Shown here piece after piece: positions 6,004-37,681 of a DNA stretch of 64,000 bases. The notes under the pieces were generated by a model. It was given only the letters and a program-made list of their open reading frames with translations. It did not search any database and was not told the origin of the DNA. The position numbers were made by a program, and so were the translations under genes. Source of the stretch: Marinobacter sp. SS13-12 (GTDB taxonomy: Bacteria; Pseudomonadota; Gammaproteobacteria; Pseudomonadales; Oleiphilaceae); assembly GCF_030227115.1 (NCBI RefSeq), contig NZ_JASSUA010000003.1, positions 62,001 to 126,000 on the forward strand, in the 5' to 3' direction. Numbering within the stretch: position 1 is the stretch's first letter; the number at the start of each line of letters is the position of its first letter.

Positions 6004-8856
6004 TTACATGGCCTCGATTGCAGTCCGCTGCTCGGTGAGACGGCTCATGCTGCCCTGGGCATCCCGGAGCTTGTCCTTCTCTTTTTCCACCACATCAGCC
6101 GGGGCCTTGGCGGTGAATTTTTCATTGCCGAGCTTGCCTTCCAGCCGGTCCACCTCTTTCTGCAGTCGCTCGAGTTCCTTGTCCAGGCGCTTGAGCTCGG
6201 CATCCTTGTCGATCAGGCCGGCCATGGGTACCAGCACTTCCATCTCGCCAACCAGTTGGGTGGCAGACATGGGGGCGTCACCGTCGGTGAACCATTCCAC
6301 GCTCTCCAGCTTGGCCAGGGATGCCAGGAACTGGCGGTTCTCGTCCAGCCGGCGCTTGTCTTCCGGGGCTTTCCCACGGAGCAGTACCGGGATGGCCTTT
6401 GCCGGGGAGATGTTCATTTCGCCACGGATATTCCGTACCGCAACAATCACGCCTTTCAGCCATTCGATATCGGCGGCAACGGCGGCGTCCTGCTTGCCCG
6501 CATCCGGCTGGGGGAAGGGCTGCAGCATGATGCTGTCACCAGTCTTGCCGGCCAGTGGTGCGATACGCTGCCAGATTTCCTCGGTAATAAACGGCATGAT
6601 CGGGTGCGCCAGGCGCAGAACTGCCTCAAGCACACGCACCAGCGTACGGCGGGTGCCACGCTTCGCCTCGGCACTGGCGTTGTCGTCGCTCAGGGCTGGC
6701 TTGGAGAGCTCCAGGTACCAGTCGCAGTATTCGTTCCAGATAAATTCGTACAGGGCGTAGGCCGCCAGGTCGAAGCGATACTGGTCCAGGTGGCGGATCA
6801 CGTCCTGCTCGCAGCTCTGGAGTTCGCTGATGATCCAGCGGTCTGCCAGGGAGAGTGCTACCGGCTCGTTGTTAACGCCGCAATCTTCGCCCTCGGTGTT
6901 CATCAACACGTAACGGGCGGCATTCCACAACTTGTTGCAGAAGTTGCGGTAGCCCTCCAGGCGCTTCATGTCCCAGTTGATGTCGCGGCCGGTGGTGGCC
7001 ATGGCGGCCAGAGTGAAGCGCAGGGCATCGGTGCCGTGGGCGGTGATGCCTTCCGGGAATTCCTTCTTTGTACGCTTGGCGATTTTCTCGGCCAGCCTGG
7101 GCTGCATCAGGTTGCCGGTGCGCTTTTCCAGCAGGTCATTCAGTTCGATGCCGTCAATCATGTCCAGCGGGTCGATGACGTTGCCCTTGGACTTGGACAT
7201 CTTGTCGCCGTGCTCGTCACGGATCAGACCTGTGACGTAGACAGTCTTGAAGGGTACCTGTGGAGTGCCGTCTTCATTCTTCATGAAGTGCATGGTCATC
7301 ATGATCATCCGGGCAACCCAGAAGAAGATGATGTCAAAACCGGTGACCAGCACATCAGTAGGGTGAAAGGTTTTCAGCCGTTCAGTGATGTCCGGCCAGC
7401 CCAGGGTGCCAAAGGTCCACAGGGCAGAGCTGAACCAGGTGTCGAGAACGTCGTCGTCCTGGTTCAGTTCCAGGTCCGCGGCAAGGCTGTGCTTATGGCG
7501 CACTTCGTCCTCACTGCGGCCAACGTAGATATTACCCTCGGCGTCGTACCAGGCGGGGATGCGGTGGCCCCACCAAAGCTGGCGGGAGATACACCAGTCC
7601 TGGATGTCGCGCATCCAGGCAAAGTACATGTTTTCGTACTGCTTGGGCACAAACTGGATACGCCCGTCTTCCACCGCTTCGATAGCAGGCTTGGCCAGGG
7701 TCTTGGCGTCAGCGAACCACTGGTCTGTGAGCATGGGTTCGATGACCAGGCCGGAACGGTCGCCTCGGGGTACGCTCAGCACGTGGTCTTCCACCGCCTC
7801 AACCAGGCCTTCGGCGTCCATGTCTGCCACGATCCGCTTGCGGGCTTCTTCGCGGGTAAGGCCGGCATAGGCAGCGGGCAGGGTGCCGTCTACGTCGGTG
7901 TTCTCGGTGCCATCGGGATTGACCACTTCGGCCACATCACGGATAGAGGCGTCCTGGGTCATGACGTTGATCATCACCAGGTTGTTGCGTTTGCCCACGG
8001 CGTAGTCGTTGAAGTCATGGGCCGGGGTGATTTTCACGCAGCCGCTGCCTTTCTCCGGGTCGGCGTGGCTATCGGCGACAATGGGAATGCGTCGGCCCAC
8101 CAAAGGCAGGTCGACGAATTTGCCAACCAGGTGTCGGTAACGCTCGTCTTCCGGGTGAACGGCCACGGCGGTGTCGCCCAGCATGGTTTCCGGGCGCGTG
8201 GTGGCGACCACCAGGTAGTCCTTGCCGCCCTGTGTTTTCTCGCCGTCGGCCAGCGGGTAGCGCAGGTGCCAGAAAAAGCCCTTTTCTTCCTTGTTCTCCA
8301 CTTCCAGATCGGAGATGGCGGTATGCAGTTTCGGGTCCCAGTTGACCAGGCGCTTGCCGCGGTAGACCAGGCCTTCGTCGTACAGGCGGATGAACACTTC
8401 CTGAACCGCCTTGTAGAAGCCGTCGTCCATGGTGAAGCGTTCGTGGTCCCAGTCCACGGAGTTGCCCAGGCGGCGCATCTGGCCGGTGATGGTGCCACCG
8501 GAGTGCTCTTTCCAGTCCCAGATGCGTTTGATGAATTCTTCCCGGCCCAGGTCATAGCGGGTTTTGTCTTCTTCCGCTGCCAGTTTGCGTTCGACCACCA
8601 TCTGGGTCGCGATGCCGGCGTGGTCGCTGCCTACCTGCCAGAGGGTATTGCGGCCCTGCATGCGTTTGAAGCGGGTAAGCGTGTCCATGATAGTGTGCTG
8701 GAACGCGTGGCCCATGTGCAGGCTGCCGGTAACGTTGGGCGGTGGGATGGCGATGCTGAACGATTCGCCTTCGCCGGAGGGACGGAAGTACCCTTTGGAT
8801 TCCCAGTTTTCGTACCACTGGCGCTCGATGTTTTCTGGCTGGTAGGTTTTTTCCAT
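6004..8856 (-). CDS. valS: Valyl-tRNA synthetase
   Basis: Class I aminoacyl-tRNA synthetase charging tRNA-Val. The 950 residues are full length for the bacterial family. The HIGH-type motif appears as [16 protein letters not shown] (about residues 38-53) and the KMSKS loop as [13 protein letters not shown] (about 555-567). Between them lies the CP1 editing domain ([19 protein letters not shown]). A C-terminal coiled coil (about 885-945, [23 protein letters not shown]) is the tRNA-binding tail typical of ValRS. The gene follows pepA and holC on the same strand after a 467-bp gap with two long palindromes. Confidence 0.98.
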
Positions 8857-8959
8857 GGGTTTCTACTGGTGACCGTTTGGTTGATTCACAAGGGAAATTC
8901 AAGATGGCCGATTATACATGCTCACCTGGGTTGCGGCGAACCTTGGGGTGCAGGGGTAC

Positions 8960-9038
8960 GGGGGTGGTTTGAATTTCAGACGAAAAAGAACTCGCTGCGC
9001 TCAGACACCTTTTCTCGCCTGAAATTCAAACCACCCCC
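8960..9038. repeat. Long palindrome with conserved 39-nt loop (copy 1)
   Basis: Perfect 20-bp arms, GGGGGTGGTTTGAATTTCAG at 8960-8979 and its complement at 9019-9038, extend outward about six more base pairs with one mismatch. The 39-nt loop (8980-9018) holds AAAAGAACTCGCTGCGCTC followed by (A)GACACCTTTTC, which can itself fold through GAAAAG/CTTTTC. The same loop occurs in opposite orientation at 9208-9247 inside a palindrome with different arms. It lies in the holC-valS gap. It could act as a terminator or mRNA-stability hairpin, but the paired copies suggest a dispersed repeat family. Confidence 0.9.
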
Positions 9039-9185
9039 ATACCCTTATGTGCTCCGAGTTGTCTCGACTGTGTTCAATGGTTTTACCTGGGTTTGATTGT
9101 TAGCCTGTTTTGCATATCCCGCTTTCAGATAAAACACAGACAGACCCTGCACAGCTCTGGAGAAATCGGATAGGCCTATAAGAGT

Positions 9186-9269
9186 GGGGTGGTGATATTT
9201 ATTTCCCGCCAGGAAAAGGTGTCCGAGCGCAGCGAGTTCTTTTCCAAGGGAAATAAATATCACCACCCC
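9186..9269. repeat. Long palindrome with conserved loop (copy 2, inverted)
   Basis: Perfect 22-bp arms at 9186-9207 and 9248-9269; the inner part of the left arm is GATATTTATTTCCC, unrelated to copy 1, while the outer eight bases GGGGTGGT are shared. The 40-nt loop is the reverse complement of the copy 1 loop over about 31 bases with one mismatch. The rest of the 8857-9323 gap (9039-9185 and 9270-9323) shows no gene or RNA signature. Confidence 0.9.
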
Positions 9270-9323
9270 GCTCCTCCTCCAAACGAACAGTCCTACAAAA
9301 GGCTTAAAATCAGGCAAAAAATC

Positions 9324-9797
9324 TCACCGCTTCCTCTGATCATGCACCCGAGGCTCAATCCCCAACGCCCTCAGTTGCTTGAAATGCGACCGCGCCTGCG
9401 CAAGAACCGACTCGTCATTATGAGCCACCAACGCCAACCGCTTGAACCGGTCCGCATCCGCCGGCAACGTGGCCGAGAGGATGATGACCGTATCCCAGTC
9501 TTCGGCGACCGGCGGGCAAAGTAATATCCCGACGGGATCGGTGCAGGTAGTGGCGGAGTCGGGGACGATGCTATGGGGTATGAATGCGTCGGGGCTGAAA
9601 TTCCAGAGCAGGTCGTCCAGTTCCTGGGCGTGCTGCATGGTGTCGCAGACGATGCCCACGCGGTCGCCCTGCTGCCGCGCCTTGGCCACCAGTTTGGCGG
9701 TGTGGAGGTTGCGGGCAGCAGGGGTGTTCTGGGCGAGGATGTGGAACCAGTAGGACTGGTTCCTTTCATCCTGGGCGCCGGGATTACTTGCCGGCAT
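9324..9797 (-). CDS. holC: DNA polymerase III subunit chi
   Basis: Chi subunit of the DNA polymerase III clamp loader, linking psi/tau to single-strand-binding protein. The 157 residues carry the family layout: YWFHILAQ near the N-terminus, [32 protein letters not shown] and the [19 protein letters not shown] core. Its start overlaps the end of pepA by 14 bp, an arrangement (pepA-holC-valS) common in gammaproteobacteria. The C-terminal extension ([18 protein letters not shown]) is basic. Confidence 0.93.
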
Positions 9798-28894: not shown

Positions 28895-28998
28895 CCATTG
28901 CGGAGGCCCTTTCCAGGAAACGCTACGAGCACATCCATGTGCGCTTGACTCCGGCCGTCCATGGCCGGAGACATTCCTGGAAAGGGCCTCCGCAATGG
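28895..28998. repeat. Long palindrome with structured 54-nt loop
   Basis: Perfect 25-bp arms at 28895-28919 and 28974-28998 (inner half GAGGCCCTTTCCAGGAA and its complement), with imperfect pairing for some 15 more bases outward. The 54-nt loop contains two smaller stems, CACATCCATGTG and CTCCGGCC(GTCCAT)GGCCGGAG. It lies between the convergent oadB and dnaE2 genes. Too far from oadB to be its main terminator; resembles a dispersed palindromic repeat. Confidence 0.88.
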
Positions 28999-37261: not shown

Positions 37262-37681
37262 GTGTGCCGGGCATGGCACAGAACTAGGGAGGTGAAAGTC
37301 CTCCTGCCAGGTGTTCGCAGAGCCGAAGGCTAGGAGAAGGGCAAGGGCGTCATCGCGAGGTGGGGTCTGAAGGAAGCCCAATCCAAAGCGGCGGGGCGAC
37401 GAACAGGAACCCGATACGAGGTGTGGTACATCCGGGGCGAGCGGGCACGTGACCGCGAAGCCCTCCTTCTGCGACTGGGATGTGCTTTATAAATCGGGCG
37501 CCCACGCCGTGAAAGCTCTGTGCCTTACCCTGGGAGGTCTGCCACGTGTGGACGGACCCACTGAGAGACGAGCGATCGCCTCTGATCGCGTGGCAGAAAT
37601 CAGCAGAGGGCATAGTAGGTTCGCCCGTGAACCGAAGGCCCGAACAGAGACAGGAGTCGAGAGTCCGTGCAGGGAAACGGG

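What the first reader, a model, noticed from the sequence alone, without database searches (positions are those of the whole stretch)
8960..9269. Two palindromes with the same loop but different arms, in inverted orientation
Seen directly: both elements have perfect arms of 20 and 22 bp, yet the inner arm sequences are unrelated. The loops (39 and 40 nt) are the same over about 31 bases with one mismatch when one is reverse-complemented. In ordinary REP or terminator repeats the stem is conserved and the loop drifts; here it is the reverse. Each arm matches only its own partner, so some process must copy one arm from the other, for example template switching during replication or conversion around a conserved mobile cap. 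The outer GGGGTGGT is shared. This may be an undescribed class of short palindromic element.
Basis: partly seen in the sequence, partly recalled or inferred. Interest (0 to 1): 0.72.

Follow-up and report, generated by a model that had tools for sequence, protein, structure and literature searches.

The report
Capped hairpin pairs with free stems
A repeated DNA element in the sea bacterium Marinobacter and some related bacteria keeps the tip of its hairpin nearly unchanged while the two sides of the stem change together, which suggests that something in the cell reads the tip and only needs the stem to stay paired.

Summary
A 20-base cap, GTGTCTGAGCGNAGCGAGTT (strand R), has 30 matches in this genome (28 of 29 places checked are palindromes) and occurs in 113 of 124 Marinobacter genomes; it also occurs in a minority of other Gammaproteobacteria, with quite different stems. 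In Marinobacter the element is a stem of about 32 pairs, free in sequence, between the cap and short end motifs at fixed distances. It often forms an inverted pair; the window's pair (8947-9301) has a diverged copy at another site in the same genome, aligned over its whole length. Orthologous copies show coupled changes on both arms, including indels, while the cap hardly changes (3.7% against 13% for arms and 24-32% for outer flanks). Stem mismatches are mostly G-U on one strand (151 against 17), pointing to selection on that strand folded alone, as RNA or single-stranded DNA. A second, unrelated cap (B) occurs in similar elements, also in relatives' holC-valS gaps. Close RAYT transposases are too rare to explain the family. 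Arms copied around a mobile cap at each insertion are not supported; coupled drift is. No Rfam family matched, and my paper searches found no description. Function is unproven.

The parts
8947..9301 (.). Whole inverted-pair unit (hairpin F, spacer, hairpin R) in the holC-valS gap
   Evidence: Aligns over its whole length (66%, 375 columns, E 4e-40) with own-genome copy L029 (C1:537 kb); the alignment stops at the unit's ends
8954..9044 (-). Hairpin 1: arms 8954-8987 and 9011-9044. Reads as F on the + strand; the R strand, which tolerates G-U, is the - strand
8989..9008 (-). Cap of hairpin 1 (R reading GTGTCTGAGCGCAGCGAGTT on the - strand)
9058..9065 (-). Inner end motif of hairpin 1, diverged form of GCGATAAC
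   Evidence: Position rule; sequence; weak match here
9066..9159 (.). Spacer of the pair, alignable with the spacer of the copy L029
9160..9167 (+). Inner end motif of hairpin 2, diverged form of GCGATAAC/GCGATATC
   Evidence: Position rule; sequence; weak match here
9182..9273 (+). Hairpin 2: arms 9182-9207 and 9248-9273; R reading on the + strand
9219..9238 (+). Cap of hairpin 2 (R reading, one base off the consensus)
9288..9296 (+). Outer end motif CAGTCCTAC of hairpin 2

Best explanation
A dispersed, non-coding hairpin-pair repeat that works like an oversized REPIN or MITE. The unit is two capped hairpins in inverted orientation with a spacer. Shown: the unit has been copied as a whole; the hairpin has a conserved cap and end motifs at fixed distances and a stem whose sequence is free but which stays paired; stem mismatches are tolerated mainly as G-U on one strand (R); in the window's gap, species with one hairpin look like deletion products of the pair. 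Inferred: the R strand acts when folded by itself, as RNA or as single-stranded DNA; an unknown factor reads the structured cap (tip GC-GNA-GC) and needs only a long helix below it. In Marinobacter most sampled copies now pass vertically at gene 3' ends, held by selection on cap and helix; template switching may help to mend the arms. What the factor is, and whether the host profits, is not known.
For: Family: cap in 113 of 124 Marinobacter genomes, 30 matches in this one; 28 of 29 places here are palindromes. Unit: window 8947-9301 aligns end to end with L029; pair spacers fall into homology groups (42 pairs). Orientation: 50 of 51 neighbours less than 600 bp apart lie F then R, as do 17 of 17 close pairs outside Marinobacter. 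Frame: in 147 non-redundant elements the 3' motif is found in 98 (82 of them 47-53 nt after the cap) against 7 to 14 in three control stretches; the 5' motif in 28 (25 of them 56-58 nt before the cap) against 3 to 12. Coupled arms: 52 compensated pairs in 1945 along 95 nearest-relative comparisons; 104 distinct compensated events, and indels scored as compensated in 16 ortholog groups. Cap 3.7% divergent, arms 12.7 and 13.9%, outer flanks 24.2 and 31.7% (94 comparisons). Strand: isolated stem mismatches G-U on R against G-U on F are 151:17 in Marinobacter (208 elements), 27:11 outside (77) and 14:3 for cap B (23). Deletion products: seven species compared. The same cap with unrelated arms in other families.
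Against: No partner protein was found and no transcription data exist here. RNAfold gives the R strand the lower energy in only 78 of 208 Marinobacter elements (66 of 77 outside). F-strand G-U pairs (17) are rarer even than transversion mismatches (137), which selection for R folding alone does not explain. Within gaps between genes on one strand there is no bias of R to the mRNA strand (17 against 15 groups). Pair polarity is the opposite in genome G1246 (15 of 15 pairs 303-512 bp apart), and some pairs 316-394 bp apart in family f49 are also reversed. The 5' motif is seen in only 28 of 147. For cap B the 3' motif is found downstream in 9 of 28 but also upstream in 8 of 28. Orthologs are not independent, so the p-values are too small.
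Confidence: 0.55

Rival explanations
1. A host RNA element: the R hairpin in transcripts stabilises or processes mRNA 3' ends or limits read-through between convergent genes. Past mobility is incidental.
For: By majority context of 73 ortholog groups, 36 lie in convergent gaps and 3 in divergent ones, against 16 and 65 of 149 element-free gaps. Long retention at the same loci with coupled changes. G-U skew.
Against: No preference for R on the mRNA strand in tandem gaps (17 F, 15 R groups). No terminator-like site in 8800-9400. At holC-valS 17 of 29 readable gaps lack cap A. Gene calls were my own crude ORF calls.
Confidence: 0.25
2. A giant GTAG-type REP moved by a RAYT (REP-associated tyrosine transposase).
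For: The outer end reads GTAG on strand F in 61 of the 137 flanks that hold the motif, out of 218 distinct flanks. Cap A lies within the fetched stretch around 7 of 12 close RAYT genes. Pairs, inverted order and solo remnants as in REPINs (PMC3116915, passages).
Against: Close RAYT relatives (E below 1e-50) are in 12 of 124 Marinobacter genomes, cap A in 113; G098 with 36 cap matches has only a distant hit. 11 of 12 RAYT genes have ordinary GTAGG-type REPs nearby. In L132 the same locus holds a cap-A pair only 508 bp apart, too close to hold the RAYT. The G-U-tolerant strand is the one opposite to GTAG.
Confidence: 0.12
3. One reading: template switching or conversion makes one arm from the other, and this alone keeps the arms paired without function.
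For: Transversion-type double changes equal transition-type ones (26 and 26; 52 and 52); compensated indels. A study of rRNA stems proposes this mechanism, with 61% of instantaneous double changes of the transition type (PMC8794818, abstract and one section).
Against: It does not explain the slow cap (3.7%) or the one-strand G-U skew. Adjacent double changes are not clustered (p = 0.098). The compensated-indel count depends on alignment and at least one example sits at the stem end of identical arms.
Confidence: 0.06
4. Ordinary intrinsic terminators.
For: Strong hairpins at gene 3' ends.
Against: No T run and no terminator-like site in 8800-9400, where shuffles average 0.7; terminators have no conserved 20-nt loop.
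Confidence: 0.02

Closest known systems
REPINs (Pseudomonas fluorescens SBW25; PMC3116915, passages read)
   Same: Inverted doublets as the spreading unit, singlets as remnants, compensatory changes in the hairpin, extragenic sites.
   Different: There the short REP ends are conserved and the middle pairs; here each end is itself a hairpin of about 32 bp with a conserved cap and free arms, spacing is 150-600 bp in Marinobacter, and close RAYTs are in 12 of 124 genomes.
GTAG-tagged REPs and TnpA-REP (PMC3733652 and PMC8266576, passages read)
   Same: Strand-specific recognition of a folded single strand; GTAG at one end in part of the copies.
   Different: REPs are 20-40 bp with the stem conserved; here GTAG is not general and the G-U-tolerant strand is the other one.
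RNA stems maintained by template switching (PMC8794818, abstract and section 8 read)
   Same: Multi-base compensatory changes with a stable loop.
   Different: rRNA genes; here dispersed repeats. The skew and the slow cap call for selection as well.
Stem-loop repeat families found by systematic search of 40 bacterial genomes (PMC2267715, passages read)
   Same: Multi-copy intergenic structured repeats, some with a double hairpin.
   Different: The passages I saw name neither Marinobacter nor a conserved-loop, free-stem family.

Membership tests
GTAG-REP / RAYT system | Terminal GTAG on the folded strand | tested here: not met
   GTAG lies on F, at 61 of 137 motif-bearing flanks (218 distinct flanks); G-U tolerance is on R
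GTAG-REP / RAYT system | Cognate RAYT in the genome | tested here: not met
   Close RAYT in 12 of 124 genomes against cap A in 113. A different mover was not excluded.
REPIN | Inverted doublet as the unit of spread | tested here: met
REPIN | Highly conserved REP ends | tested here: not met
   End motif in 98 of 147, arms free
MITE | Dispersed non-coding unit with terminal inverted repeats | tested here: met
   Pair as inverted unit copied to a second site
MITE | Target-site duplication and parent transposon | tested here: inconclusive
   A few shorter gaps were compared by eye; no clean duplication or parent seen
Known RNA family (Rfam 15) | Match at the curated threshold | tested here: not met
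   No match on the elements (at gathering on 19 sources; with E-value limits on part of the loci)
Intrinsic terminator | GC-rich hairpin followed by a T run | tested here: not met
   0 sites in 8800-9400; window element only
Structured RNA | Transcribed and folded in the cell | not testable with these tools
   No expression data

The most novel reading that the evidence does not exclude
An undescribed superfamily of Gammaproteobacterial elements in which a dedicated factor reads a structured cap (GNA-tipped cap A, or the two-hairpin cap B) on one strand of a long helix of any sequence. The caps are interchangeable modules in a common frame, and the paired unit is a replicating or regulatory particle, larger than a REPIN and independent of RAYTs.
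Probability: 0.3. Interest if true: 0.82.

Novelty: new variant of a known kind. Interest (0 to 1): 0.62.

Why it matters
Bacterial palindromic repeats are mostly defined by conserved stems. Here the cap is the identity and the stem is a free helix, with hundreds of natural replicates at orthologous sites. That makes two open questions testable: how long perfect stems stay paired over evolution (selection or template switching), and which strand and which nucleic acid an intergenic palindrome works in. A conserved cap shared by distant Gammaproteobacteria also implies an unknown reader.

Tried and rejected
RAYT mobilisation: rejected as general cause, though 7 of 12 close RAYT loci have cap A nearby. 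Intrinsic terminators: no site. Kissing of the two complementary loops in a pair: the free base N agrees in 64% of 42 pairs against 51% expected, so not required. Kink-turn reading of the loop: considered from memory, does not fit. Full-length autonomous element in G1246: the three 1.7-kb units hold transposase-like ORFs of two kinds that look like insertions into the unit; judged by eye, no family search run. Contig-end copies in G257 taken at first for recent amplification: the sequence beside them looks like 5S rRNA by eye, so rRNA repeats explain the breaks. Plasmids: no match. Viral contigs: 1 contig. Literature: searches gave no description; one search listed 20 of 130 papers, and one search was badly worded and found 0.

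Full report
What is there. The window holds two long palindromes between valS (6004-8856, minus) and holC (9324-9797, minus; gene names from the finding and from position, ORFs). Hairpin 1 has arms 8954-8987 and 9011-9044, hairpin 2 arms 9182-9207 and 9248-9273. I call F the strand reading GAACTCGCTKCGCTCAGACACC and R its complement, cap GTGTCTGAGCGNAGCGAGTT. The pair reads F, spacer, R on both strands.

It is a family. A second pattern with up to 1 mismatch gives 30 in this genome, and a match in 113 of 124 Marinobacter genomes.

Anatomy. Over 217 stems the median is 32 paired bases; one stem, at a contig end, is under 20. Read along R, the motif CAGGCTA or CAGTCCTA (one mismatch allowed) lies in the 3' stretch of 98 of 147 non-redundant elements, 82 of them 47-53 nt after the cap, against 14, 14 and 7 in control stretches. 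GCGATAAC or GCGATATC lies in the 5' stretch of 28, 25 of them at 56-58 nt before the cap, against 12, 3 and 3. The R cap ends in GCGNAGC; in 220 cap matches N as read on F is T in 137, G in 78, A in 3 and C in 2. That d(GCGNAGC) forms a very stable small hairpin is recalled, not tested.

Pairs. Of 51 neighbouring caps less than 600 bp apart, 50 lie F then R and 1 otherwise. Spacers of 42 close pairs fall into homology groups, one of them joining two loci. The window's pair aligns at 66% over 375 columns (E 4e-40) with the pair at C1:537 kb (L029), from 8947 to 9301, and the match ends at the unit's ends. So the unit, not the cap, was copied.

The window's gap in relatives. Seven gaps were aligned: the window, L147 and L149 hold the pair; L077 and L091 only the left hairpin; L113 only the right; L156 one hairpin with left arms and the right outer flank, joined at a CCACC repeat. 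This looks like loss from a pair. Among the 30 loci returned of 120 genomes with holC, one could not be read; of 29, 6 hold the pair, 6 one hairpin and 17 no cap A; four of the 17 have a gap of 83 bp. At least eight of the 17 hold a different long palindrome, cap B, by inspection (a ninth, L180). Without a tree I cannot say which state is older.

Arms change together. Between orthologs, 236 close comparisons over 4757 stem pairs show 222 compensated changes and 271 with one mismatch. At group level there are 104 distinct compensated events, 52 transition-type and 52 transversion-type, and 135 uncompensated (86 G-U on R, 8 G-U on F, 41 other); indels scored as compensated occur in 16 groups, uncompensated ones (27) in 9. 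The indel count is an upper bound, since at least one case is at the stem end of identical arms. Along 95 nearest-relative comparisons in 32 groups there are 52 compensated (26 and 26), 61 R-wobble, 3 F-wobble and 35 other in 1945 pairs; comparisons with arm difference above 0.25 were dropped, and adjacency is not significant. Without that filter, but with gene flanks at most 25% diverged, the mean divergence over 94 comparisons is 12.7 and 13.9% for arms, 3.7% for the cap, 24.2 and 31.7% for outer flanks and 13.0% for gene flanks. Transition-type changes are 50% here; a study of rRNA stems gives 61% for instantaneous changes (PMC8794818, section 8), so this share alone is not unusual.

Strand. 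Isolated stem mismatches are G-U on R 148 times and G-U on F 12 times (217 stems; 41 and 11 distinct contexts). A second method gives 151 and 17 in Marinobacter, 27 and 11 in 77 elements outside, and 14 and 3 for 23 cap-B elements in the matching orientation. The counts are not independent, but three sets agree. This says that R folded alone is what matters; it does not tell RNA from single-stranded DNA. Against it: predicted energies favour R in only 78 of 208 Marinobacter elements, and F-type G-U is rarer even than transversion mismatches.

Place. 189 elements fall into 73 ortholog groups: 36 in convergent gaps, 17 tandem with F in the mRNA, 15 tandem with R, 3 divergent, 2 unclear; element-free gaps of 120-700 bp in the same loci are 16 convergent, 68 tandem, 65 divergent. 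Gene calls were crude.

Beyond Marinobacter. In an order sample 13 of 293 genomes match: 11 of 12 Marinobacter, and G257 and G243. In a class sample 7 of 369 match, this genome and six others, control 0; about 0.01 would be expected by chance (my estimate). In one family 43 of 57 and in another 6 of 79 match. In a phylum sample 12 of 398 match, all labelled genus, order or class; by my count of the list, 261 genomes of other classes have none. 65 distinct elements outside Marinobacter have other arms and another frame; 17 of 17 close pairs lie F then R. G1246 has 44 matches with up to 1 mismatch (one control match), in the opposite order (15 pairs 303-512 bp apart and three of about 1.7 kb), with near-identical long copies, for example 96.6% over 534 bp. 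So recent copies share arms and old ones have diverged arms.

Cap B. The own genome has 17 matches, control 0, three of the listed pairs in the same orientation. It has a three-way shape by prediction and seems to share the end motifs: the 3' motif lies at 42-45 nt after the core in 9 of 9 finds of 28 stretches, but an upstream control also finds it in 8 of 28, and the 28 include a few that look like coding sequence. So the common frame of A and B is likely, not proven.

Mover. RAYT relatives with E below 1e-50 occur in 12 of 124 genomes. Ordinary REPs lie near 11 of the 12 and cap A near 7. In L132 the orthologous gap has a cap-A pair 508 bp apart, too close for the RAYT, so in the own genome the RAYT probably entered between. 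I found no other candidate.

Verdict. A new variant of bacterial intergenic palindromic repeats, working like an oversized REPIN with cap identity and a free stem. It is not filed as a REP or REPIN because tested features fail. The most likely mechanism is a factor that reads the cap on folded R; that step is inferred.

Noticed in passing
window 28921-28945 (-) and G000 L209-L221: Cap B family: long free-arm palindrome with a two-hairpin cap (AGCGCACATGGATGTGCTCGTAGCG core); 17 matches in this genome.
   Followed up: partly
L157 1748-2323 (-): RAYT gene (Y1 transposase) with GTAGGTCGGATTAG-type REPs on both sides, probably inserted between two cap-A elements.
   Followed up: partly
L234-L238 (G257): Cap-A pairs at contig ends; in L238 the cap lies beside what looks like a 5S rRNA gene, in a genus outside Marinobacter.
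   Followed up: partly
L345-L347 (G1246): Cap-A units that carry transposase-like ORFs of two kinds between the hairpins.
   Followed up: partly
window 37349-37640: Group II intron domain matches (Rfam RF02001 and RF01998).
   Followed up: no
window 35447: Another 20-bp palindrome with a 24-nt loop, of neither cap.
   Followed up: no
L041 2529 and L089 about 1690: Long palindromes at orthologous or similar places in which the cap seems to have been deleted, leaving a short loop.
   Followed up: no
L068: Stretch of long G runs with N, probably an assembly fault.
   Followed up: no
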